A stretch of DNA of 64,000 nt, taken from NCBI RefSeq assembly GCF_000719955.1, contig NZ_JOII01000010.1, positions 62,001 through 126,000 of the forward strand. Direction: 5' to 3'. Positions 22,089-35,467 of this stretch are shown here, piece after piece. Below the pieces are notes generated by a model. The model worked only from the letters and a program-made list of their open reading frames with translations, searched no databases and had not been told where the DNA came from. This stretch comes from Streptomyces albidoflavus. Lineage in GTDB: Bacteria; Actinomycetota; Actinomycetes; Streptomycetales; Streptomycetaceae. The position numbers and the translations under genes were made by a program. Each line of letters begins with the position of its first letter. The first letter of the stretch is position 1.

Positions 22089-23710
22089 CTACGGGCGAGC
22101 GGGCTCGTCGGCCGGGGGAACCAGGTGCCTTACCTCGGGCTCGCGCTCGGCCAGGTCGCGGGCGGTCGTCAGCAGCTCCGCGTCGTAGCCGGTGAGGCGG
22201 GCGCCGTGCTGGCGCAGGTGCTCGGACCAGGAGGCGACCTCGAAGACCTCCACCCAGCGGCGGGGGTCGGCCGCGTCCTGGTAGAGGTTCCAGCGCAGGG
22301 CGCCGGTGCGCCGCCGGGAGACGGCCGCCTCGGCCATCGCCGCACGGAACCGCTCCGCCCGGTCCTCAGGCACCTCGTAGGCGACCTCGACCAGGACCGG
22401 GCCGTCGTCGGGATCGACGGGAAGGGCCAGCGCCGGTTCCGGCCAGGGGCCACGATGGTCCGGTCGAGTGTGCCGGTCCGCTCGCGCAGCGGCAGCCAGG
22501 TCAGCGAGGCCGCCGACGCCAGCAGCAGCCCCGCCGACACGAGCAGCGTCTCGGCGGTGCCGATGCCGTCGGCGAGCAGGCCCCACAGGAGCGTGCCGAT
22601 GCCCTGGCCGCCCATGAAGACCATGAGGTAGACGGCGAGGCCGCGCGCCCGCACCCAGCCGGGCAGGGCCAGTTGCAGAGTGGCGTTGAGGGTCGAGAGC
22701 GCGTACAGCCAGCCCACGCCCGCCACCACCAGGACCACCGCCACCGGCACCGGCTGCCGCAGTACGGCGGCGGCCAGCGTGCCCGCCGCGAACGCCACCG
22801 TGCTGACGGCCAGCAGCACGTTGCGCCCGAGCCGCTCGCGCACCCGCCCGATGGTGACGGCCCCGACGATGGCCCCCGCCCCGAGCGCCCCCAGCAGCAG
22901 CCCGTACCCGCCCGAGCCCAGCCCCAGGCGCCGCTCGGCGACGACCGGCAGCAGGCCCCAGAGCGCCGAGGCCGGGACGACGAAGAGGCCCGAGCGCAGC
23001 AGCACCCGGCGTACACCCGGCGCGTTGCGCACGTAGCGGGTGCCGGAGGCCAGGGCGGGGCGCATCCGCTCCCGGTCGCCCGCACCGTGGCGGGCCCGGT
23101 GCCAGCCGAGCAGGGCGGCGAGGACGCCGAGGAAGGAGACGGCGTTGAGGGCGAAGACGACGTCGGGCCCGGTCGCGGCGACCAGCAGCCCGGCCACCGC
23201 CGGGCCGATCGCCCGGGCCACGTTGACGTTGAGGCTGCCCAGCGCCGCCGCGGCCGGGATCTGCTCACGCGGCACCAGCTCCGGCTGGATCGCCTGCCAC
23301 CCCGGGCTCATCAGCGCCTGGCCGCAGCCGATCAGGAAGGTCAGGGCGATCAGGACGGCCGGTGTGGTCAGCCCCGCCGCCGTCAGCGCGGCCAGGGCCG
23401 CGCAGAGCGCCGCCATCACCCCGGAGAGCGTCATCAGCAGCGCCCGCCGGTCCAGCACGTCGGCGAGGACGCCGGCGGGCAGCGACAGGAAGAGCACCGG
23501 CAGCAGGGAGGCCGCCTGCACCGCGGCGGTCAGGGTGGGCGCGTTGGGCTGCTGGACCAGCATCCACTGCGCCCCGACGGTCTGCATCCAGGTCCCCACG
23601 TTGGAGCCGAGCTGCGCGCTCCACAGCACCCGGAAGGTACGCCCGCGCAGCGGTGCCCAGGAGGACGGGCCGTTCTCCCGGGCACCGCCGTCGTGCTTCT
23701 GCTGCGTCAT
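22089..23710 (-). pseudogene. MFS transporter with C-terminal ABM-like domain, interrupted by a one-base frameshift
   Basis: ATG 23710 (MTQQKHDGG) begins an MFS exporter of about 420 residues with 12 membrane segments (WSAQLGSNVGTWMQTVGAQW, LGALGAGAIVGAVTIG, FMGGQGIGTLLWG). After ERTGTLDRTIV the reading frame breaks near 22447-22452, at GGCCCC on the coding strand. The next frame continues WPEPALALPVDPDDGPVL and an ABM-like domain (RRTGALRWNLYQDAADP, WSEHLRQH) to 22089. Restoring one base gives about 540 residues, the usual size for this MFS-plus-monooxygenase-like family. This is either a real frameshift or a sequencing error. As it stands the product would end in an unrelated tail. The substrate is unknown. 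Confidence 0.82.
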
Positions 23711-23868: not shown

Positions 23869-26091
23869 CTACAGCTCCTTGATGCGGACGTCGCGGTACG
23901 AGACGACGTCGGTGACGCCGTGGACCTGGAGGCCGATGTAGCCGGAGGCGTAGCGCCGGCCGTCGGTGCCCGGGTCGTCGTCCCGCGGCGGGTTGAAGGA
24001 CTGCCCGCCGGTGTTGTCGAACTCGTTGATCAGGGTGCCGTTTCGGTAGATCTCGTAGTGCTGCCCGGTCACCTTGATCTCGTAGTCGTTCCAGGTGCCC
24101 TTCGGGGTCACCCCGGCGCCGCCGAGGCCGACCCGGTCGAAGCCGTAGACCGAGCCCGACTTGTACATGTCGCCGTCGGGGCGGTCCAGGATCTGGAGTT
24201 CATGGCCGTACTTGATGGCCACCCACTCCGGGCGGGACTCCTCCGGGTGGTCGTAGGGGTGGGGGAAGCGGGCGAAGACACCCGCGTTGGCGTTGCCGCC
24301 CTCGGGCGCGTCGTCCCGCCACTGGAGCTTCAGCGAGAAGTCGTCGTACTTGCGCTCGGGGAACCACAGCATCCCCATGCCCTCGACCTCGGTGGAGCTG
24401 GTCATCGAGCCGTCCTCGTTCAGGACGAAGGCGCCGCCGCCGGCCTGCTCCCACTGGGCGAAGGACTTCTCGGTGCCGTCGAAGAGCTTGCGGTAGCCCT
24501 CGGTCTGGCCGGGCTTGCCGATGCCGGAGGCCTTGGCGGCCTGCCGGATCTGGCGGGTCTCCCGCTTGTCGATGACGCCTTCCTTGCCGAGCGCGGTCAG
24601 GACCGTCTCGACGTGCTTGAGGAAGAGGGCGTTGGAGGACCACTCACGCTCGTCCTCGATCCGCTCGTTGATCCGGCAGCGGTTGTTGGTGATCCGGTTG
24701 GGGACGCCGCTGTCCTCGTCGCCGACGAAGACGGTCTCCCGCTCGTCCAGCTCCGCGCACGGCGGGGCCGGGACGTCGCCGCCGATCACCGAGAACGACA
24801 CCTGGCGGGCCTCGGAGGTGTTGCCCGCCTTGTCGCTCGCCCGGTAGGCGACGGTGTGCCGGCCGACCCGGTCGACGACGACCGCGTCCGCGTAGGCGAG
24901 GTAGGGCCCGCCGTCCAGCGAGTACTCGACCTTGTCGACGCCCGACTCCTCGTCGGTCGCCTTCACCGTGACCGTGGCCTTGCCGAGGTAGGCCCCGGCG
25001 GAGTTGCGGTCGCCGGTCAGGGCGGCCGAGACCTCCGGCGCCGTGGTGTCCTCGGCCGGCTGCTCCACCACGGTGAACTCGGTGGTCTGCGCCTCGGAGC
25101 GGTTGCCCGCCTTGTCGGTGGCGCGGTAGCGGAACTGGTGCTCGCCCACCTCGTGCACCATCACGGGCGCCTCGTACGCCTGCCAGGCGCCGTCCGCGCC
25201 CAGCGCGTACTCGATGGTGTTGACGCCCGAGCCGGTGTCGGAGGCGGTCACGGTGACCGTCGCCATGCCGACGTAGGCGCCGTCCGCGTCCTGGTCCCCG
25301 GCGACGGTCGCCGAGGTCTCGGGCGGGTCGGTGTCGTCGGTGTCCGGAGCGGCCACCGTGAACTCGGCGCTCTTCTCCTCCGACTGGTTGCCGGCCTTGT
25401 CGGTGGCGCGGTAGCGGATCACGTGGTCGCCGACCTCGTTCACCACGACCGGCTCCGCGTACGGCTCCCAGGCGCCGTCGGCGCCCCGGGCGAACTCGAC
25501 CGTGTCGACGCCCGAGCCCTCGTCCTTCGCGTCCAGCGAGACGGTGGCGCTGCCGACGTAGTCCCCGTCGGCGTTCTGCTGGCCGTCGACCGAGGCGGTG
25601 ACCTCGGGGGCGGTGGTGTCGTCCCCGCCGCCGCCGTCCTCGCTCACCACGAGGGTGCCCTGCATCTGCCCGTGGCCGGGAATGGTGCAGTGGTAGCGGT
25701 AGGTGCCCGGGGTGAGCACCACCTCGGCGGTGTGCTTGCCGCCGTTGGCGTCGGAGGGGTTGGCGAGGATGTTGAGCTGGACGTCGCTGTTGTAGTCCGG
25801 GTTGCCGGTGTCGAAGGTCAGCGTGTGCGGCATCGACGTGGTGTTGCCGGTCGCCTCGCTGTTCTCGAAGACGATCGTGGTGGGCCCGGGGGCCGCGGTG
25901 GTGGGCGCCGACGCGTACTTGTCGATGTCGTTGCCCGCGGTCCAGGTGAGCGTCTGCTCGGCCGCCGCCTTCGGGTCGCCGCCGCCGATCTCGCCGGCCG
26001 CCGCCGGGGCGGTCAGCCCCAGCAGCATCAGCAGCGCCGCGATCAGCGCGGTGCCCACGCGCGGGGGTCCGCCCCGCCGTGTCCTTCTCAT
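23869..26091 (-). CDS. Secreted multidomain protein: cupredoxin, three Ig-like repeats, DUF1080 (3-keto-disaccharide hydrolase) domain
   Basis: This 740-residue exported protein has a signal peptide (MRRTRRGG, then TALIAALLMLLGLTAPAAAG). Next is a blue-copper domain with ligands MPHTLTF (His) and YHCTIPGHGQMQG (Cys, His, Met; about 85-155). Three near-identical Ig-like repeats follow, each with SGVDTVEF-, SGVNTIEY- or SGVDKVEY-type strands and YRATDKAGN. A helical segment with two cysteines comes next, then a DUF1080 lectin-like domain (KLFDGTEKSFAQW, then SGYIGLQVHG). DUF1080 members act on 3-keto-glycosides. The ATG overlaps the upstream stop (TGATG). I infer an electron-carrying copper domain tethered to a sugar-processing domain. 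Confidence 0.9.
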   Translation of the reverse strand: MRRTRRGGPPRVGTALIAALLMLLGLTAPAAAGEIGGGDPKAAAEQTLTWTAGNDIDKYASAPTTAAPGPTTIVFENSEATGNTTSMPHTLTFDTGNPDYNSDVQLNILANPSDANGGKHTAEVVLTPGTYRYHCTIPGHGQMQGTLVVSEDGGGGDDTTAPEVTASVDGQQNADGDYVGSATVSLDAKDEGSGVDTVEFARGADGAWEPYAEPVVVNEVGDHVIRYRATDKAGNQSEEKSAEFTVAAPDTDDTDPPETSATVAGDQDADGAYVGMATVTVTASDTGSGVNTIEYALGADGAWQAYEAPVMVHEVGEHQFRYRATDKAGNRSEAQTTEFTVVEQPAEDTTAPEVSAALTGDRNSAGAYLGKATVTVKATDEESGVDKVEYSLDGGPYLAYADAVVVDRVGRHTVAYRASDKAGNTSEARQVSFSVIGGDVPAPPCAELDERETVFVGDEDSGVPNRITNNRCRINERIEDEREWSSNALFLKHVETVLTALGKEGVIDKRETRQIRQAAKASGIGKPGQTEGYRKLFDGTEKSFAQWEQAGGGAFVLNEDGSMTSSTEVEGMGMLWFPERKYDDFSLKLQWRDDAPEGGNANAGVFARFPHPYDHPEESRPEWVAIKYGHELQILDRPDGDMYKSGSVYGFDRVGLGGAGVTPKGTWNDYEIKVTGQHYEIYRNGTLINEFDNTGGQSFNPPRDDDPGTDGRRYASGYIGLQVHGVTDVVSYRDVRIKEL

Positions 26092-28628
26092 CACTTCCCC
26101 TTCCCGGCCAGGTCGCCGGCGGCCGGGGTGGGCCCGCCGCCGGTGTAGGTCACGCGCCACAGCGCCGACTTGTCGTCCGAGGTGAAGAAGCCGCGGCCGT
26201 AGTCGAGGACGTACAGGGCACCGTCCGGACCGAACTTCCAGTCCATGAGGTTCCTGATGCCGTTCTCCCCGACGGGCACGATCTTCTTCAGCGACTCGGC
26301 GTGCACCGGCAGTCCGCCCTTGCCGACCGTCTTCGGGTCGGTGAGCACGGCGTGCCGCGGCTGGTCGGCGTCGTAGAGGTCGCCGACGAACCACTTGCCG
26401 TCCCAGTACGCGGGCCACTTGACGTCCGAGTCGCTGTCGGCGTCGAAGCGGTAGAGCGGGCCGTTCATCGCGGCCTGCCCGCCGCCCTTGAGCCAGGGCA
26501 GCCGGAAGAACTGCTCGTCCTTGTCGTAGGAGGGCACCCCGTTCTCGTCACGCGGGAAGTCGGGGCCGCCGCCGTCGGGCGAGTACCAGATGGTGTTGCC
26601 CGTCACCGGCGGCAGGTTGACCAGGCCGTCGTTGTTGGGCGACTCGTTCTTCGGGGCGTCGCAGTCGTACCAGTCGAGCGGCTTGGTCGGGTCGGGCAGG
26701 TTGCGGTCCCGGTAGGGCTGCTTGTTGCCCATGCAGTACGGCCAGCCGTGGTTGCCGGGGCCGGTGATGGCGGCGAAGGTGTCGTACTTGGCCGGGCCCC
26801 AGGTGGTGGAGGGCGCGCCGGCGTCCGGGCCGACCCAGCCCGCGTAGAGCGTGTCGGTCTTCTTGTCGATCGCGATCCGGGCCGGGTTGCGCACGCCCAT
26901 CACGTAGATCTCGCCGCGCGTCTTGCCGCCGCCCTCGTCCGGCTCGTCACCCGTGAAGAGGTTGCCCTTGGGCAGCGAGTACGTGCCGTCGTCCTCGGGG
27001 TGGATGCGGAGGATCTTGCCGTTGAGGTTGTTGGTGTTGCCCGAGGTGCGGCGGGCGTCGGCGAAGGAGAGGCCCTTGAAGTTCGGCTCCGGGTTGTTGC
27101 CCGAGTAACCGTCGGTGAACTGGCTGGAGTTGGTGTCACCGGTGGCGATATACAGGTTGTCGTCCGAGTCCCAGGCCATGCCGCCGCCCGCGTGGCAGCA
27201 GCTGTGGATCTGGACGGGCCAGTCCAGCAGCACCTTCTCGGAGTCGAGGTCCAGCTTGCCGGTGGACTCGTCGAAGGTGAAGCGCGAGACGCGCCGCTCG
27301 CCGACGTGCTTGTCCCGGTCGATCTCCGAGTGCGGGGTGTAGTGCAGGTAGACCCAGCCGTTGTCCTCGAACTTCGGGTCCAGCTCGATGCCGAGCAGCC
27401 CCTCCTCGTTCTTGACCAGTTCCTCGCCGCCGCCCTTGTTGCCGAAGACGGTCAGCGAGGCGGCGAGGCTCACCTCGTCGGTCTTCGGGTCCCAGACGTG
27501 GACCTGTCCCTGGCCCTTGCCGACGTTCGGGTCGTTCCAGTCGGTGACGACAGGCTGCGAGGAGTCGGCGCCGCCGCGGCCGATGTAGAAGACCCGGCCG
27601 TCCTTGGCGGTGACCAGGCCGTGCGGCTCGCCGATCTGGTCGTTCTTCCCGGGCTGGTTGGGCTCGGTGAGCCGTTCGGCCTTGTAGTTGGCGTCGATGG
27701 ACGCCTTGCAGTCGGCCTGGGTCAGGCGCGCGGTCCACATCAGGGCGCCGCGCAGGTGGTCGCGGAAGTCCGCCTCGGCGAAGCTCTCGGCGGTACCGCC
27801 CATCGCGGTGTAGAAGGAGCGTCCGCCGTCGTAGTCGCGGCACCAGGAGACCGGGTGGTCGGCGCCGTTGGCCCCCTCACCGGGGGTGTAGGTGGCCTCC
27901 CGGACCCGGGCGATCGTGTGGACCTTGCCCGAAGGGTTCTCCTTCCAGTTCAGCCACTTGTCGGGACGCTTCCACTCCAGCGGCAGGCTCTTGGTCGCCG
28001 GGTGGACGCGGTCGCCGACCTCCACGGTGGCCCGCTGCGCCTTGGCGCCGCTGCCCGCGGTGGGCCGCGCGCCGATCAGCTCGCCGAACCACGAGGAGTA
28101 CGGCTCGGTGCGGGCCGCGTCGTGGATGCCGAGGAAGCCGCCGCCCGCCTCGACGTACGCCTCCAGGCCCGCCTCCTGCTCCGCGTCGAGGATGTCCCCG
28201 CCACCGGTGAGGAAGACGATGGCGTGGTAGCGGCCGAGCTTGCGCTCGTTGGTGAAGACCGAGGCGTTCGAGCTGGCCTCGGTGGTGAAGCGCTCCTCGG
28301 CCGGGCCGGAGTTGCCGATCTTCTCGATGGCCTCGATGCCCGCGTCCACGTTGGGCGCCTCGGCGCCGGTGGAGCCGTGGAAGACCAGGACACGCGTCTC
28401 GGCTCCGCCCGGCGGGGACGGCAGCGACATCGTTGTCCCCGCCGGCTCGTCGGGGAACGGCCGCGCGCTGGCCGTCCCGCCGGAGAGCATGCCGGTCAGC
28501 AGCGCGCCCGAGACCACGGCCACGGCCGCGGTACGGCCGGCGGCGGATCTGCCGGCCCGTGCTCCGGAGCCCCGTGGCTCCGGTGTCCCGCCTGGTGTGC
28601 CGGGTCGCCGATGCGGTAGCAACCGCAT
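26091..28628 (-). CDS. Secreted ThuA domain fused to PQQ-type sugar dehydrogenase (glucose/sorbosone dehydrogenase-like)
   Basis: This 845-residue protein has a long Arg-rich signal peptide (membrane core [19 protein letters not shown]). A ThuA-like domain (about 75-290: [29 protein letters not shown]) is followed by a six-bladed beta-propeller dehydrogenase (about 310-840: [32 protein letters not shown] with the probable catalytic His, [22 protein letters not shown]). ThuA belongs to a family linked to 3-keto-trehalose metabolism; the propeller would oxidise a sugar outside the cell using PQQ. ATG 28628 is preferred over GTG 28640 because GAGGGG then lies at a usable distance. It is the first gene of the operon, divergent from the laccase. 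Confidence 0.9.
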
Positions 28629-28839
28629 GTGTTCACCCACCCCTCATCGGTCACAGGAAACAGCGCGGATGAAGCTAGACCTCTTTTCGCGAGTCGCCAA
28701 GGTCTATAACCGGAATCGATCGAACTTTGTCCTGAGTGTGGATAAACCAAGGGCGCGCCGATACCGTGTGGCCGTCGTCGGAGCCCCAGACGCACCGTCG
28801 GCCCGCCCAACACCCCCACGTTTCCGAGGAGTTCAGGCG

Positions 28840-29934
28840 ATGAGCGAGGCGAACGGGTCCATCGGCAGGCGTGGCTTCCACCGCGGCCTCCTGGCAGGAG
28901 GAGCGGTCCTCGCCACCGGTGGTCTGACATCGATGTCGCAGTCCTCGGCCGCGGCGGACACCCCGCCGAAGACCGCACCGGCCGGCGGCGAGGTCAAGCA
29001 CCTCACCATGTACTGCGAGAAGATGGCCGACGGCATGACCGGCTACGGCCTGGAGAAGGGCAAGCCCTCCATCCCCGGCCCGCTGATCGAGCTGAACGAG
29101 GGCGACACCCTCCACATCGAGTTCCACAACCTCCTCGACGTGGACGCCAGCCTCCACGCGCACGGCGTCGACTACGAGATCAGCAGCGACGGCACCCGTC
29201 AGAGCAACAGCCACGTGGAACCGGGCGGCAGCCGCACCTACACCTGGCGCACCCACGCCCCGGGCCGCCGCAAGGACGGCACCTGGCGGCCCGGCAGCGC
29301 CGGTTACTGGAACTACCACGACCACGTCGTCGGCACCGACCACGGCACCGGCGGTCTGCGGCAGGGGCTCTACGGCGGGCTCATCGTCCGGCGCAAGGGC
29401 GACATCCTGCCCGACAAGACCTTCCAGATCGTCTTCAACGACATGACGGTCAACAACAAGCCCGGCCACGAGAGCCCCAACTTCGAGGCCACGGTGGGCG
29501 ACCGGATCGAGGTCCTGTCGATCACGCACGGCGAGTTCTACCACACCTTCCACATGCACGGTCACCGCTGGGCCGACAACCGCACCGGCCTGCTGACCGG
29601 CCCCGACGACCCCAGCCCGGTCATCGACAACAAGATCACCGGACCCGCCGACTCCTTCGGCTTCCAGTTCATCGCCGGCGAGGGCGTCGGCGCGGGCGCC
29701 TGGATGTACCACTGCCACGTCCAGAGCCACTCCGACATGGGCATGGCCGGCCTCTTCCTCATCGCCAAGGCCGACGGCACCATCCCCGGCTACGACCCGG
29801 ACGCGCCCCACCACACGGCGCCGAAGAAGTCCTCCAAGGAAGCCGCCGAGGAGAAGAAGGCCGCCGAGAAGAAGGGCGAGGCCCAGTCCGGCAAGAGCAG
29901 CCAGGCGGAGTCCGGCGACCACGCGCACCACTGA
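28840..29934 (+). CDS. Two-domain small laccase (multicopper oxidase), Tat-exported
   Basis: This 364-residue enzyme starts with a Tat signal ([17 protein letters not shown]). All copper-ligand motifs are present: [24 protein letters not shown] and [12 protein letters not shown] (type 1 Cys, His and Met). The two-cupredoxin size matches the Streptomyces small laccase that works as a trimer. It would oxidise phenols or another electron donor and reduce O2 to water. The C-terminus has a Lys/Glu/Ala-rich tail followed by a His-rich end (DHAHH). GAGGAG precedes ATG 28840. Its divergence from the PQQ-dehydrogenase operon suggests a shared extracellular redox role, which is inferred. Confidence 0.94.
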
Positions 29935-30012: not shown

Positions 30013-31059
30013 GTGCCCGTACCGCCCGCCACCCCCCGCCCGACCCTGGAGGCCGTCGCGGCCCGGGCGGGGGTGAGCCGGGCGACCGTCTCCCGCGTCG
30101 TCAACGGCGGCGCGGGCGTCACGGAGCAGCTCGCCGCCCGGGTCCGGCGGGCGGTGGACGAACTGGGCTACGTCCCCAACCGGGCCGCCCGCGCCCTGGT
30201 GACCCGGCGCCACGACGCCGTCGCCGTCGTCATCGCCGAGCCGGAGACCCGGGTCTTCACCGACCCGTTCTTCGCCCTCCAGTTGCGCGGCATCAGTGAG
30301 GAGCTGACGGCGCGCGACGCTCAGTTGGTCCTCATGCTGACCCGTGGCGACGAGGACAGCGAACGGGTCGGCCGCTACCTGGCCGGCGGCCACGTCGACG
30401 GCGCCCTGGTCTTCTCCGTCCACCTCGACGACCCGCTGCCCGGCCTGGTCCGCCGCACGGGGCTGCCCGCCGTCTTCGGCGGCCGTCCGGGCGACCCGGC
30501 CGCCACCCCGTACGTGGACTGCGACAACCGGGGCGGGGCGCGCGCCGCCGTCCGCCACCTGGCCTCGCTCGGGCGGCGCCGGATCGCCCACATCAGCGGG
30601 CCCCTCGACCAGACCTCGGCGGTCGACCGGCTCGACGGCTGGCGGGACATCACCGGGGCGGCGGGGGCGGGTCTCGACAACGCCCCCGACCTGCTCGCCT
30701 CCGGCGACTTCACCCCCGAGGGCGGGGCCCGGGCGATGAGCACCCTGCTGGAGCGCCGCCCCGACCTGGACGCGGTCTTCGCCGCCTCCGACCTGACCGC
30801 CTCGGGGGCGCTGTGGACCCTGCGCGGCGCCGGGCTCCGGGTGCCCGAGGACGTCGCGGTGGTCGGCTTCGACGATCTGCGCACCGTCGCGCAGCACACC
30901 GACCCGCCGCTGACCACGGTCCGTCAGGACATCGAGGAGATGGGCCGGCTGATGGCGCGCAGCCTGCTGGACGCCGGTGAGGGCGTGGACCGCCCCGACA
31001 GCGCCGCCCCGGACGGGATCGTCCTGCCCACCACCCTGGTCCGGCGCGCCAGCGCGTGA
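30013..31059 (+). CDS. LacI family transcriptional regulator
   Basis: This 348-residue protein has the LacI headpiece (TLEAVAARAGVSRATVSRVV, residues 11-30; then VPNRAARALV hinge) and a periplasmic-binding-protein-like sugar-sensing domain (FTDPFFALQLRGI, VVGFDDLRTVAQHTDPPLTTV). The GTG start at 30013 has AGGAGCG upstream. It follows the laccase gene by 78 bases and converges on the GH64 glucanase gene. A LacI-type palindrome lies upstream of that glucanase gene (32476-32489), so repression of glucan degradation with an oligosaccharide inducer is a reasonable inference. Confidence 0.93.
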   Translation: MPVPPATPRPTLEAVAARAGVSRATVSRVVNGGAGVTEQLAARVRRAVDELGYVPNRAARALVTRRHDAVAVVIAEPETRVFTDPFFALQLRGISEELTARDAQLVLMLTRGDEDSERVGRYLAGGHVDGALVFSVHLDDPLPGLVRRTGLPAVFGGRPGDPAATPYVDCDNRGGARAAVRHLASLGRRRIAHISGPLDQTSAVDRLDGWRDITGAAGAGLDNAPDLLASGDFTPEGGARAMSTLLERRPDLDAVFAASDLTASGALWTLRGAGLRVPEDVAVVGFDDLRTVAQHTDPPLTTVRQDIEEMGRLMARSLLDAGEGVDRPDSAAPDGIVLPTTLVRRASA

Positions 31060-31092
31060 GCGCCCGGGCGCGGCCACCTCGAAGAGGGACCG

Positions 31093-31109
31093 CACCCGGG
31101 CGCCGGGTG
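31093..31109. terminator. Short hairpin between convergent LacI and GH64 genes
   Basis: CACCCGG-GCG-CCGGGTG forms a 7-bp stem in the 62-base gap between two converging genes; it could terminate both directions. Confidence 0.45.
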
Positions 31110-31121
31110 GTACCGCAGGGC

Positions 31122-32354
31122 TCAGGCGCCGACCCGCACGGTGAACCGCACCGGGTTGTCGTCGTGCGCCGCGCCGGAGACGTCGGGCTCCCCGTCCGGG
31201 CGCACGTCGTCGTAGGGGAAGGCGTACCCGATGGGGGAGTTGGCGTGGACCACGCGCGACCAGTGGTTGGTGACCGGGTCGCGGTAGTAGTCGTCCGCGC
31301 CGCCGCCCGGCTGGTCCGGGTGGGTCAGCAGGGTGCTGCGGTTGAAGCCGGCGGCGAGCCGGGCCAGCAGCCCCTTCTTCTCGTCCGAGTCGTTCGGGTC
31401 GTTGGTGAACGGGCCGTGGTCGCAGGTGAAGATGTCCCGCGAGACGGGCCGGACGAACTCGTGGCCGCCGTTGAAGGTCAGCACGTCACCCTGGACCCGG
31501 CCGGTGAAGACACCCCGGCCGCCCTGGAGGTCGATCTTCAGGTCCTCGTTCGCGTACTTCTCCCAGACCTGGTCGATGTACGGCTCCCAGACGTCCTTGA
31601 ACGGCATCTTGTCCGGCTCGCCGAACCACGGCGCCATGATGGCCTGCGGCGAGACCACCCGGAGCACCTTGCCGTCGTCGCCGCGGATGACCAGCTGGTC
31701 CCAGGGCTGTCCGTCGGCCTGGGCCTGCGCCTCCAGGTCGGCGGCGATCCGGTCCACGGCGCCGTCGGGCATCGGGGCGACGTCGTGCGTCCCGTCGCCC
31801 TCCAGGGTGATGCCGATCGGCAGGGCGGTGACCAGGTCGACGTAGCTGATGTTCGAGTAGAGCTGCGTGGTGTTGAAGGTGAACTCGCAGAACGACCAGA
31901 TACGCCCGTAGTTCGGGTCGTCCGGCGAGGCGAAGGCGGGCTCCACCAGGGACGGGCCCGGGTTGAGGTAGAAGTCCAGGGTGTCGTCGCGGACGAAGTA
32001 CACCCGGGAGCCGTACATCTGCGGCAGCGTCAGCACCAGCGGGTCGGAGCCGGCGGACGGCAGCGGGATCGCGCAGTCGGCGGGCAGCGGGGTGTTGGGC
32101 TCGGCGGGGGAGTCCGGGCGGAAGACGCTGCCGTCGGCGCGGAGGATGATCCAGCGGTCCGTGGCCAGCTCGCGCCCGGTCACGTAGGCGTTGACCTGGC
32201 CGGACAACGAGGTGTTCTCCAGTGCCAGTTCGCAGGTCTCCGGCGCCGCGGCCCCGGACCGGGTGGTGGCGGAGGAGAGCTGCGGGACACCGATGACGGC
32301 GGCGGCTCCGGCCGCGCCCGCGACACCGGTGAGGAACACTCTGCGTGAGATCAC
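31122..32354 (-). CDS. Secreted glycoside hydrolase family 64 beta-1,3-glucanase
   Basis: This 410-residue exported enzyme has a Tat-like signal (ISRRVFLTGVAGAAGAAAVIG). The rest matches the GH64 laminaripentaose-producing beta-1,3-glucanases, with a thaumatin-like beta barrel: VNAYVTGRELATDRWIILRA, then QMYGSRVYFVRDDTL, FCEFTFNTTQLYSNISYVD, FNGGHEFVRPVSRDIFTCDH (each fragment within 20 residues). It would cut fungal or algal beta-1,3-glucan. GTG 32354 follows a full AGGAGG site at ideal spacing, which settles the start. Only the catalytic domain is present; no carbohydrate-binding module is seen. A LacI-type palindrome lies 122-135 bases upstream. Confidence 0.93.
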   Translation of the reverse strand: MISRRVFLTGVAGAAGAAAVIGVPQLSSATTRSGAAAPETCELALENTSLSGQVNAYVTGRELATDRWIILRADGSVFRPDSPAEPNTPLPADCAIPLPSAGSDPLVLTLPQMYGSRVYFVRDDTLDFYLNPGPSLVEPAFASPDDPNYGRIWSFCEFTFNTTQLYSNISYVDLVTALPIGITLEGDGTHDVAPMPDGAVDRIAADLEAQAQADGQPWDQLVIRGDDGKVLRVVSPQAIMAPWFGEPDKMPFKDVWEPYIDQVWEKYANEDLKIDLQGGRGVFTGRVQGDVLTFNGGHEFVRPVSRDIFTCDHGPFTNDPNDSDEKKGLLARLAAGFNRSTLLTHPDQPGGGADDYYRDPVTNHWSRVVHANSPIGYAFPYDDVRPDGEPDVSGAAHDDNPVRFTVRVGA

Positions 32355-34489: not shown

Positions 34490-35467
34490 TCAGCCCTTGG
34501 TGGCGCGGGCCTGCATGCGCGCCTTGCGGGCGGCGAGGCGTTCGTCGAACTTGGCGGCCTCGGCGTCCAGCCCGCCCATGTACAGGCCCAGTTCCTCCTG
34601 GGCCTTCACGCCCTCCGGGCCGAGCCCGTCGATCTGCATGACCTTCAGGAACCGCAGCACCGGCTGGATCACGTCGTCGTGGTGGATGCGCAGGTTGTAG
34701 ACCTCGCCTATGGCCATCTGCGCCGCCGCCCGCTCGAAGCCGGGCATGCCGTGGCCGGGCATCCGGAAGTTGACCACCACGTCGCGGACGGCCTGCATGG
34801 TCAGGTCGGGCGCCAGCTCGAAGGCGGCGCCCAGCAGGTTCCGGTAGAAGACCATGTGCAGGTTCTCGTCGGTGGCGATCCGCGCCAGCATCCGGTCACA
34901 GACCGGGTCGCCCGACTGGTGGCCGGTGTTGCGGTGCGAGATGCGGGTGGCCAGCTCCTGGAAGGCGACGTACGCCACCGAGTGGAGCATCGAGTGCCGG
35001 TTGTCGGACTCGAACCCCTCGCTCATGTGGACCATCCGGAACCGCTCCAGCTCGTCCGGGTCGACGGCCCGCGAGGTCAGCAGGTAGTCCCGCATCACGA
35101 TGCCGTGCCGGCCCTCCTCGGCGGTCCAGCGGTGCACCCAGGTGCCCCAGGCGCCGTCGCGGCCGAAAAGCGAGGCGATCTCGTGGTGGTAGCTCGGCAG
35201 ATTGTCCTCCGTGAGGAGGTTGACGATCAGCGCGGTGCGGCCGATCGGCGTCACCTTCGACTGCTCCTTCTCCCACGCCTCGCCGTCCTCGAAGAAGCCG
35301 GGGAAGTTGCGGCCGTCGGACCAGGGCACGTACTCGTGCGGCATCCAGTCCTTGGCCACCTTGAGGTGACGGTTGAGTTCCTTCTCCACGACCTCCTCCA
35401 GCGCGTGCAGCAACTGGGCGTCGGTCCATCCGCCGGACGTGGCGAGGTGGGGTGTGGTGACGGTCAT
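34490..35467 (-). CDS. Acyl-ACP desaturase (soluble diiron stearoyl-ACP desaturase family)
   Basis: This 325-residue protein has the two diiron-binding sets of the family: TEDNLPSYHHEI and EEGRHG in the first half, and ATDENLHMVFY later. The mostly helical length fits DesA-type soluble desaturases. It would introduce a double bond into ACP-bound fatty acids, changing membrane fluidity. AGGAG precedes ATG 35467. A cluster of direct and inverted repeats 42-75 bases upstream (35509-35541) suggests transcriptional control by a lipid-responsive repressor. Redox partners are not encoded nearby. Confidence 0.92.
   Translation of the reverse strand: MTVTTPHLATSGGWTDAQLLHALEEVVEKELNRHLKVAKDWMPHEYVPWSDGRNFPGFFEDGEAWEKEQSKVTPIGRTALIVNLLTEDNLPSYHHEIASLFGRDGAWGTWVHRWTAEEGRHGIVMRDYLLTSRAVDPDELERFRMVHMSEGFESDNRHSMLHSVAYVAFQELATRISHRNTGHQSGDPVCDRMLARIATDENLHMVFYRNLLGAAFELAPDLTMQAVRDVVVNFRMPGHGMPGFERAAAQMAIGEVYNLRIHHDDVIQPVLRFLKVMQIDGLGPEGVKAQEELGLYMGGLDAEAAKFDERLAARKARMQARATKG

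What the first reader, a model, noticed from the sequence alone, without database searches (positions are those of the whole stretch)
23869..29934. Possible extracellular 3-keto-sugar oxidation system: ThuA-PQQ dehydrogenase, cupredoxin-DUF1080 and small laccase
ThuA and DUF1080 are both linked to 3-keto-glycosides, the PQQ-type propeller oxidises sugars, and the cupredoxin is a ready electron acceptor. The divergent laccase could return electrons to O2. Together they could oxidise a glycoside at C3 and then split it outside the cell without a classical hydrolase. Such an assembled chain has not, to my knowledge, been described in Streptomyces.
Basis: inference. Interest (0 to 1): 0.72.

Follow-up and report, generated by a model that had tools for sequence, protein, structure and literature searches.

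The report
Small laccase wedded to sugar-oxidation genes
A much-studied secreted bacterial laccase whose natural job is unclear sits, in nearly every genome checked here, beside genes for a secreted sugar dehydrogenase, a copper electron carrier and a domain of the family that cleaves 3-keto-sugars, which points to one shared oxidative sugar-processing system outside the cell.

Summary
Window 23869-29934 encodes ThuA-GSDH (P0002), a cupredoxin/Ig/DUF1080 protein (P0001, overlapping it as TGATG) and a divergently transcribed canonical two-domain laccase, SLAC (P0003). Among 296 genomes of the class, 41 of 42 with SLAC have the dehydrogenase and 41 of 41 with the dehydrogenase have SLAC, adjacent, in four families. 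Outside the genus DUF1080 is fused to ThuA-GSDH and the cupredoxin is separate: modules reshuffled, partners kept. The divergent intergenic region holds AACTTTGT in 53 of 53 loci. Type-1 copper ligands and the propeller's His and Arg-Asn are invariant. So the modules very probably form one secreted system. The electron route (sugar, propeller, cupredoxin, SLAC, O2) and 3-keto chemistry remain inference. Against: no pqqE over cut-off in this genome, and ThuA/GSDH/DUF1080 paralogues exist without SLAC. Value: SLAC's unclear role becomes testable.

The parts
26091..28640 (-). ThuA-GSDH protein (P0002), secreted-type leader; likelier start ATG 28628
27732..28394 (-). ThuA domain (P0002 residues 83-303)
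26118..27509 (-). GSDH propeller region (about P0002 residues 378-841; Pfam match 408-645, NCBIfam 378-640, paralogue alignments to 841)
27192..27206 (-). H-S-C-C-H, P0002 residues 479-483; H483 aligns with the sGDH catalytic His (role recalled)
26886..26891 (-). Arg584-Asn585, aligned with the PQQ-contacting Arg-Asn of sGDH (role recalled)
23869..26091 (-). Cupredoxin / three Ig-like repeats / DUF1080 protein (P0001)
25636..25971 (-). Cupredoxin domain (P0001 residues 41-152), type-1 ligands H89 C135 H140 M143
24772..25614 (-). Three OmpL47/Ig-type repeats (P0001 residues about 160-440)
23878..24498 (-). DUF1080 / 3-keto-disaccharide hydrolase domain (P0001 residues 532-738)
28840..29934 (+). 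SLAC two-domain laccase (P0003)
28672..28700 (-). Promoter-like TTGGCG-N17-TAGCTT pointing to P0002 (exact in 46 of 53 loci, spacing 17 in 52 of 53); promoter role inferred, strict consensus scan found none
28723..28732 (+). AACTTTGTCC, conserved operator-like element (AACTTTGT 53 of 53, AACTTTGTCC 48 of 53 loci)
28738..28767 (+). Promoter-like GTGGAT-N18-TACCGT pointing to SLAC; TAC[CG]GT 39 bp from the start of AACTTTGT in 44 of 53 loci; role inferred

Best explanation
The locus encodes one secreted redox system. SHOWN by comparison: SLAC, a ThuA-GSDH protein, a type-1 cupredoxin and a DUF1080 domain are inherited together and kept adjacent across several actinomycete families; in the genus they share one conserved divergent intergenic region. 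INFERRED: the GSDH propeller, with PQQ taken from the surroundings (or another cofactor), oxidises a hydroxyl of a glycoside outside the cell; the cupredoxin, on its Ig-repeat arm, takes the electrons one at a time and hands them to SLAC's type-1 copper; SLAC reduces O2 to water and so acts as terminal oxidase of an extracellular chain; DUF1080 (with ThuA, exact role unknown) then splits the 3-keto-glycoside by elimination and hydration. My odds: one functional system about 0.9; C3-keto chemistry about 0.5; electrons through cupredoxin to SLAC about 0.4. The figure given is for the whole statement.
For: Adjacency: SLAC divergent to ThuA-GSDH in 35 of 35 loci found with P0002 and 17 of 17 found with SLAC; cupredoxin in 52 of 52, DUF1080 in 51 of 52; 80 of 80 named loci (at least 9 overlap the unnamed ones). 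Flanking genes are far less kept. Class level: SLAC in 42 of 296, dehydrogenase in 41 of 296, 41 shared, gap under 2 kb in all 41 by the coordinates. Fusion: ThuA-GSDH-DUF1080 is one frame in 14 of 15 other-family loci with the dehydrogenase, the 15th cut by its contig end, so DUF1080 has changed partner within the set. A cupredoxin protein stands beside two SLACs without dehydrogenase in three loci, which fits a direct cupredoxin-SLAC link. Conserved region: AACTTTGT 53 of 53, 78 of 80 named, the extended motif once in the genome; as conserved as coding sequence and more than downstream controls. Ligands: H, C, H, M invariant in 53 of 53 and 17 of 17; propeller H483, R584, N585 in 53 of 53 and 15 of 15. 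Cupredoxin's best solved relatives are the electron carriers auracyanin A and plastocyanin. DUF1080's top fold row is a 3-keto-glycoside eliminase/hydratase.
Against: No catalytic step was tested. pqqE passes its cut-off in 5 of 36 carriers and 7 of 25 non-carriers, and not in this genome. GSDH/ThuA/DUF1080 paralogues without a cupredoxin domain are in the same genome, and relatives occur in genomes without close SLAC, e.g. G004 and G015. H483, R584 and N585 are also kept in those paralogues (5 of 5), so they do not mark this subfamily. The rest of the PQQ pocket could not be aligned; the P0002 model has pLDDT 59. Lectins and CBM66 score nearly as high as the 3-keto enzymes against the DUF1080 fold. 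In a related two-domain oxidase the type-1 copper faces a central tunnel (PMC13151041, passages), which may hinder docking of a protein donor. AACTTTGT is absent near SLAC in the f19 and f28 loci.
Confidence: 0.38

Rival explanations
1. Phenolic-glycoside system. Dehydrogenase and DUF1080 release phenolic aglycones from plant aryl-glycosides; SLAC oxidises the freed phenols; the quinones or radicals re-oxidise the dehydrogenase, as recalled for fungal laccases with sugar dehydrogenases. The cupredoxin is a side acceptor or serves copper handling.
For: SLAC oxidises many plant phenolics (12 of 23 tested; PMC3918160, passages). A SilA laccase mutant of S. ipomoeae was compared with wild type on wheat-straw lignin (PMC5675413, passages). 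Same genomic evidence as the best explanation.
Against: Does not by itself explain why the cupredoxin's copper ligands are invariant in 70 of 70, nor cupredoxin beside SLAC without dehydrogenase in three loci.
Confidence: 0.27
2. Copper link. The cupredoxin stores or delivers copper to SLAC (or protects against copper); the sugar genes share the site because all are secreted at the same growth stage, not because electrons pass between them.
For: Cupredoxin beside two SLACs without dehydrogenase in L126-L128. Copper homeostasis is among the proposed roles of bacterial laccases (PMC5675413, PMC13151041, passages).
Against: Does not explain the fusion of the cupredoxin to DUF1080 or 41 of 41 dehydrogenase genomes having SLAC. 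Closest solved relatives of the cupredoxin are electron carriers.
Confidence: 0.14
3. Binding rather than chemistry. The propeller lacks its cofactor and the DUF1080 and Ig domains only bind polysaccharide, anchoring SLAC activity on plant material.
For: No pqqE in this genome; DUF1080 fold resembles lectins and CBM66 nearly as well as enzymes; Hedgehog-interacting protein is among the weak propeller matches.
Against: Propeller H483, R584, N585 invariant in 68 of 68; DUF1080 belongs clearly to PF06439 (8.3e-34), whose member BT2157 is described as a 3-ketotrehalose hydrolase (PMC9007349, passages).
Confidence: 0.13
4. Mere neighbours: an old chance arrangement carried along by descent.
For: Sampled species are related, so the counts and Fisher values are not independent.
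Against: Flanking genes are not kept (in 35 loci MFS 1, LacI 13, g31056 2). Orientation and domain fusions differ between families while the partners stay. G048 looks as if one deletion removed most of the block.
Confidence: 0.04

Closest known systems
SLAC-type (type B) two-domain laccases, e.g. S. coelicolor SCO6712 and S. griseus EpoA (names from PMC3918160, PMC12705666)
   Same: P0003 is a plain member: full-length match to solved two-domain laccases
   Different: Nothing in the enzyme itself; new is its fixed gene company, which I did not find described
3-keto-glycoside eliminase/hydratase, DUF1080/PF06439 (BT2157; Caulobacter CCNA_01705)
   Different: Here DUF1080 is carried on a cupredoxin arm, or on the dehydrogenase itself in other families; the dehydrogenase is a GSDH propeller, not LacABC
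Soluble PQQ sugar dehydrogenases (sGDH, Asd-type; 1c9u, 2ism, 3a9g)
   Same: GSDH Pfam family; His and Arg-Asn aligned and invariant
   Different: Fused to ThuA; vicinal cysteines before the His; host has no pqqE over cut-off
Auracyanin/plastocyanin-type cupredoxins
   Same: Full type-1 ligand set; best solved relatives by sequence. Recalled precedent: copper nitrite reductase, a related two-domain fold, is fed by cupredoxins
   Different: Here tethered to Ig repeats and, in this genus, DUF1080; proposed partner is an O2-reducing laccase

Membership tests
SLAC-type two-domain laccase | Two multicopper-oxidase domains and full-length similarity to solved two-domain laccases | tested here: met
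   (best E 1.1e-166)
[quoted passage not shown]
   no structure or assay; copper motifs present by eye
PQQ-dependent GSDH sugar dehydrogenase | GSDH sequence family | tested here: met
   PF07995 88.0 bits over cut-off 25; NCBIfam TIGR03606 46.5 bits, far below its cut-off 434.55
PQQ-dependent GSDH sugar dehydrogenase | Catalytic His and PQQ-contacting Arg-Asn (roles recalled) | tested here: met
   H483, R584, N585 aligned and invariant in 53 of 53 and 15 of 15
PQQ-dependent GSDH sugar dehydrogenase | Remaining PQQ and calcium site | tested here: inconclusive
   alignments break off before the C-terminal contacts; model too poor
PQQ-dependent GSDH sugar dehydrogenase | PQQ made by the host (supporting, not defining) | tested here: not met
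   pqqE TIGR02109: no match over cut-off in own genome; 12 of 61 genus genomes, 5 of 36 carriers; other pqq genes not searched
3-keto-glycoside eliminase/hydratase (PF06439) | PF06439 sequence family | tested here: met
   117.7 bits over cut-off 26.8
3-keto-glycoside eliminase/hydratase (PF06439) | Fold of the solved eliminase/hydratases | tested here: met
3-keto-glycoside eliminase/hydratase (PF06439) | Cleaves 3-keto-glycosides | not testable with these tools
   needs assay
Type-1 cupredoxin electron carrier | Cys-His-His-Met copper ligands | tested here: met
   H89, C135, H140, M143 in 53 of 53 and 17 of 17
Type-1 cupredoxin electron carrier | Accepts and donates electrons to named partners | not testable with these tools
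   needs assay
LacABC-type 3-dehydrogenase pathway | LacA, LacB and LacC dehydrogenase parts | not tested
   not searched for; the dehydrogenase here is a GSDH propeller

The most novel reading that the evidence does not exclude
SLAC's native work is not phenol oxidation: it is the terminal oxidase of a secreted electron chain (glycoside, quinoprotein-type propeller, tethered cupredoxin, laccase, O2) that drives non-hydrolytic 3-keto cleavage of glycosides outside the actinomycete cell.
Probability: 0.33. Interest if true: 0.88.

Novelty: new variant of a known kind. Interest (0 to 1): 0.7.

Why it matters
The physiological roles of two-domain laccases were still called poorly understood in 2026 (PMC13151041, passages). 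This comparison gives SLAC, a much-studied bacterial laccase, a fixed set of partners and a conserved shared regulatory region, so its role can be tested by single deletions and by mixing three purified proteins. If the electron route holds, it would be an oxygen-reducing electron chain outside any membrane, and a route to oxidative glycoside cleavage in soil bacteria that decompose plants.

Tried and rejected
PQQ synthesis as support: rejected, pqqE does not track the locus (5 of 36 carriers, 7 of 25 non-carriers). LacI (30013-31059) as universal regulator: weak, seen within the fetched flanks in 13 of 35, 9 of 17 and 36 of 80 loci while the intergenic element stays. MFS gene (22169-23710) as part of the system: rejected, 1 of 35 and 1 of 17 loci, at 31% and 27% identity. 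P0002 structure model: pLDDT 59, not used for a fold search. Fold search of P0001: the VIA rows cover mainly residues 528-740, so the cupredoxin and Ig parts were barely tested. Pfam names the cupredoxin in only 5 of 8 cupredoxin proteins and not in the one; the others rest on similarity to P0001 and its ligands. S. scabiei suberin-induced 'glucose/sorbosone dehydrogenase' (PMC4098958, PMC4567563, passages): a lead only, I could not tell whether it is this protein. Literature on the link: DUF1080 with 3-keto-glycoside, with ThuA and SCO6711/6713/6714, my guess at neighbours of SCO6712, gave 0 papers; the combined search gave two (listing only). The ThuA whole-word search was swamped by unrelated words. 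Most subscription papers are not held. Before the co-occurrence counts I dropped weak matches: P0002 relatives at 48% identity or less (43 of 61 genomes have some match) and other multicopper oxidases at 40% or less (51 of 61 have some match). One search printed nothing because of a column error in my script; one search is the corrected run. One search counted the motif in 77 of 80 loci with a wrong slice for L180; one search gives 78 of 80.
Full report
OBSERVATION. P0002 (26091-28640, minus) is ThuA plus a GSDH propeller. P0001 (23869-26091, minus) is a cupredoxin, three Ig-like repeats and DUF1080; its ATG overlaps P0002's stop (TGATG). P0003 (28840-29934, plus) is a two-domain laccase that matches solved SLAC-type enzymes. 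All three begin with secretion-type leaders by eye; P0003 has an RRGF Tat-like motif.

CONSERVATION IN THE GENUS. P0002 was searched in 61 genomes of the genus. 43 have some match; 36, the window's own included, have a near-full-length orthologue (66% identity or more). I fetched the 35 other loci. SLAC is divergently adjacent in 35 of 35, the cupredoxin is present in 35 of 35 and DUF1080 in 34 of 35; in G037 the cupredoxin protein is short and no DUF1080 was found at the locus. Flanking genes are far less kept: MFS 1, LacI 13, g31056 2 of 35. From the SLAC side, 51 of 61 genomes have some match and 38 a close one (60% identity or more): the same 36, plus G058 (a SLAC without partners in the 17.9 kb fetched) and G048 (a remnant with stops, whose SLAC and DUF1080 fragments abut, as if one deletion had removed what lay between). 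A second set, 17 further genus loci found with SLAC at class level, has all four modules in 17 of 17. A third, 80 named loci (79 Streptomyces, one Actinacidiphila), has ThuA-GSDH divergent in 80 of 80 and cupredoxin and DUF1080 in 78 of 80; in the other two the contig ends inside ThuA-GSDH. This third set overlaps the others: at least nine of its contigs have the same length as one of the unnamed contigs.

CO-OCCURRENCE IN THE CLASS. In 296 genomes of the class SLAC is found in 42 (E 1e-30 or better) and the dehydrogenase, sought with the GSDH part of an other-family protein, in 41 (E 1e-120 or better). The 41 are a subset of the 42; the exception is G076. By the coordinates of the two calls a SLAC lies less than 2 kb from the GSDH segment in all 41. 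22 of them lie outside the genus, in three other families: 17 same strand, 5 divergent. Fisher's test gives 1.2e-49 for all and 2.4e-31 outside the genus, with no correction for shared ancestry.

DOMAIN RESHUFFLING. I fetched 20 loci from outside the genus. 15 have the dehydrogenase next to SLAC. In 14 of these ThuA, GSDH and DUF1080 lie in one frame (10, 4; about 1350-1400 aa), and a cupredoxin protein in another frame follows; in the 15th, L131, the contig ends before DUF1080. The four such proteins scanned with Pfam (L123, L132, L139, L141) also carry PKD and an F5/8-type domain. The other five loci: L126, L127 and L128 have a cupredoxin protein beside two SLACs and no dehydrogenase there; L129 and L140 have SLAC without the partners. 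Pfam itself lists Copper-bind in 5 of the 8 proteins (one of which is the ThuA fusion and one of which, L123's, is a cupredoxin protein without the hit) and not in L125's; elsewhere the identification rests on similarity to P0001's cupredoxin. A Micromonospora protein (P0125) has the cupredoxin-Ig-DUF1080 layout of this genus (cupredoxin by eye; Pfam lists DUF1080). So DUF1080 sits on the dehydrogenase in some families and on the cupredoxin protein in others, while the set stays beside SLAC.

SHARED REGULATORY REGION. In 53 loci (own, 35, 17) the intergenic stretch holds AACTTTGT in 53 and AACTTTGTCC in 48. In the 80 named loci it is 78 and 74; the two without have a one-mismatch form. Towards P0002, TTGGCG-N17-TAGCTT is exact in 46 of 53 and the spacing is 17 in 52. 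Towards SLAC, TACCGT or TACGGT lies 39 bp from the start of AACTTTGT in 44 of 53. A strict sigma-70 scan found nothing, so calling these promoters is inference. Controls: the most widely shared 10-mer is in 48 of 53 here, 14 of 50 downstream of SLAC, 22 of 52 downstream of DUF1080 and 50 of 53 inside the GSDH coding region. The extended motif occurs once in the 7.08 Mb genome with up to three mismatches; its reversed control not at all. Outside the genus AACTTTGT lies between the divergent genes in L123-L125 and between cupredoxin and SLAC in L127, but not in L126 or L128, and not near SLAC in the f19 and f28 loci (one stray in L138).

WHAT SPEAKS AGAINST. pqqE passes its cut-off in 12 of 61 genomes: 5 of 36 carriers, 7 of 25 non-carriers, not in this genome. 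PQQ is scavenged, or the cofactor differs. Paralogues in this genome, GSDH-PKD-CBM6-ThuA-DUF1080 on the same contig about 63 kb away and ThuA-GSDH-PKD-CBM6 on C8, show no cupredoxin domain. In G004 and G015, which have no SLAC match, GSDH and DUF1080 share one frame of 1246-1249 aa. So the chemistry does not need SLAC in general; the link belongs to this subfamily. A related two-domain oxidase has its type-1 copper facing a tunnel (PMC13151041, passages).

MECHANISM. Best reading: a secreted chain in which the propeller oxidises a glycoside, the tethered cupredoxin carries electrons to SLAC, SLAC reduces O2, and DUF1080 cleaves the keto-glycoside. Conservation and co-retention are shown; every catalytic step is inferred. 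The main rival keeps the parts but has SLAC act on released phenols that shuttle electrons back. Both predict that the genes act together; they differ in the need for the cupredoxin and for a phenol.

NOVELTY. My searches of an open-licence library (listings also) showed no paper that ties SLAC to ThuA, GSDH, this cupredoxin or DUF1080; I read passages of eleven papers, none whole. The kinds of parts are known; their fixed assembly around SLAC appears to be undescribed.

Noticed in passing
window 27192-27206, minus (P0002 residues 479-483): H-S-C-C-H: two neighbouring cysteines directly before the putative catalytic His, S-C-C-H invariant in 68 of 68 SLAC-linked proteins and the cysteines in 1 of 5 paralogues. 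Vicinal cysteines near PQQ recall methanol dehydrogenase (recalled); meaning unknown.
   Followed up: partly
L037:2715-6770 (G000:C10, about 63 kb from the locus) and L039:5823-9374 (G000:C8): Paralogues: one protein GSDH-PKD-CBM6-ThuA-DUF1080, another ThuA-GSDH-PKD-CBM6, both without a cupredoxin domain.
   Followed up: partly
L038:3600-6596 (G000:C2): Third DUF1080 protein of the genome: PA14, DUF7133, CBM35, DUF1080.
   Followed up: no
L126:5394-9871, L127:1-3594, L128:8580-13038: Cupredoxin-Ig protein divergent from two tandem SLAC genes, no dehydrogenase at the locus.
   Followed up: partly
L120:5291-6067 (G048) and L122:6568-6711 (G036): Remnants: in G048 fragments of SLAC (with stops) and DUF1080 abut; in G036 only the last 45 residues of DUF1080 match.
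   Followed up: no
L121:7983-9119 (G058): SLAC without the partner genes in the fetched stretch; its genome does have pqqE over cut-off.
   Followed up: partly
window 30013-31059 and 31056-32348, plus: LacI-type regulator and a 430-aa frame without Pfam match next to SLAC; LacI is kept in 13 of 35, 9 of 17 and 36 of 80 loci, the second in 2 of 35 and 1 of 17.
   Followed up: partly
window 22169-23710, minus: MFS_3-type transporter downstream of P0001; not kept at the locus.
   Followed up: yes
window 34490-35467, minus: Fatty acid desaturase (PF03405 2.3e-71), no known link to the finding.
   Followed up: no
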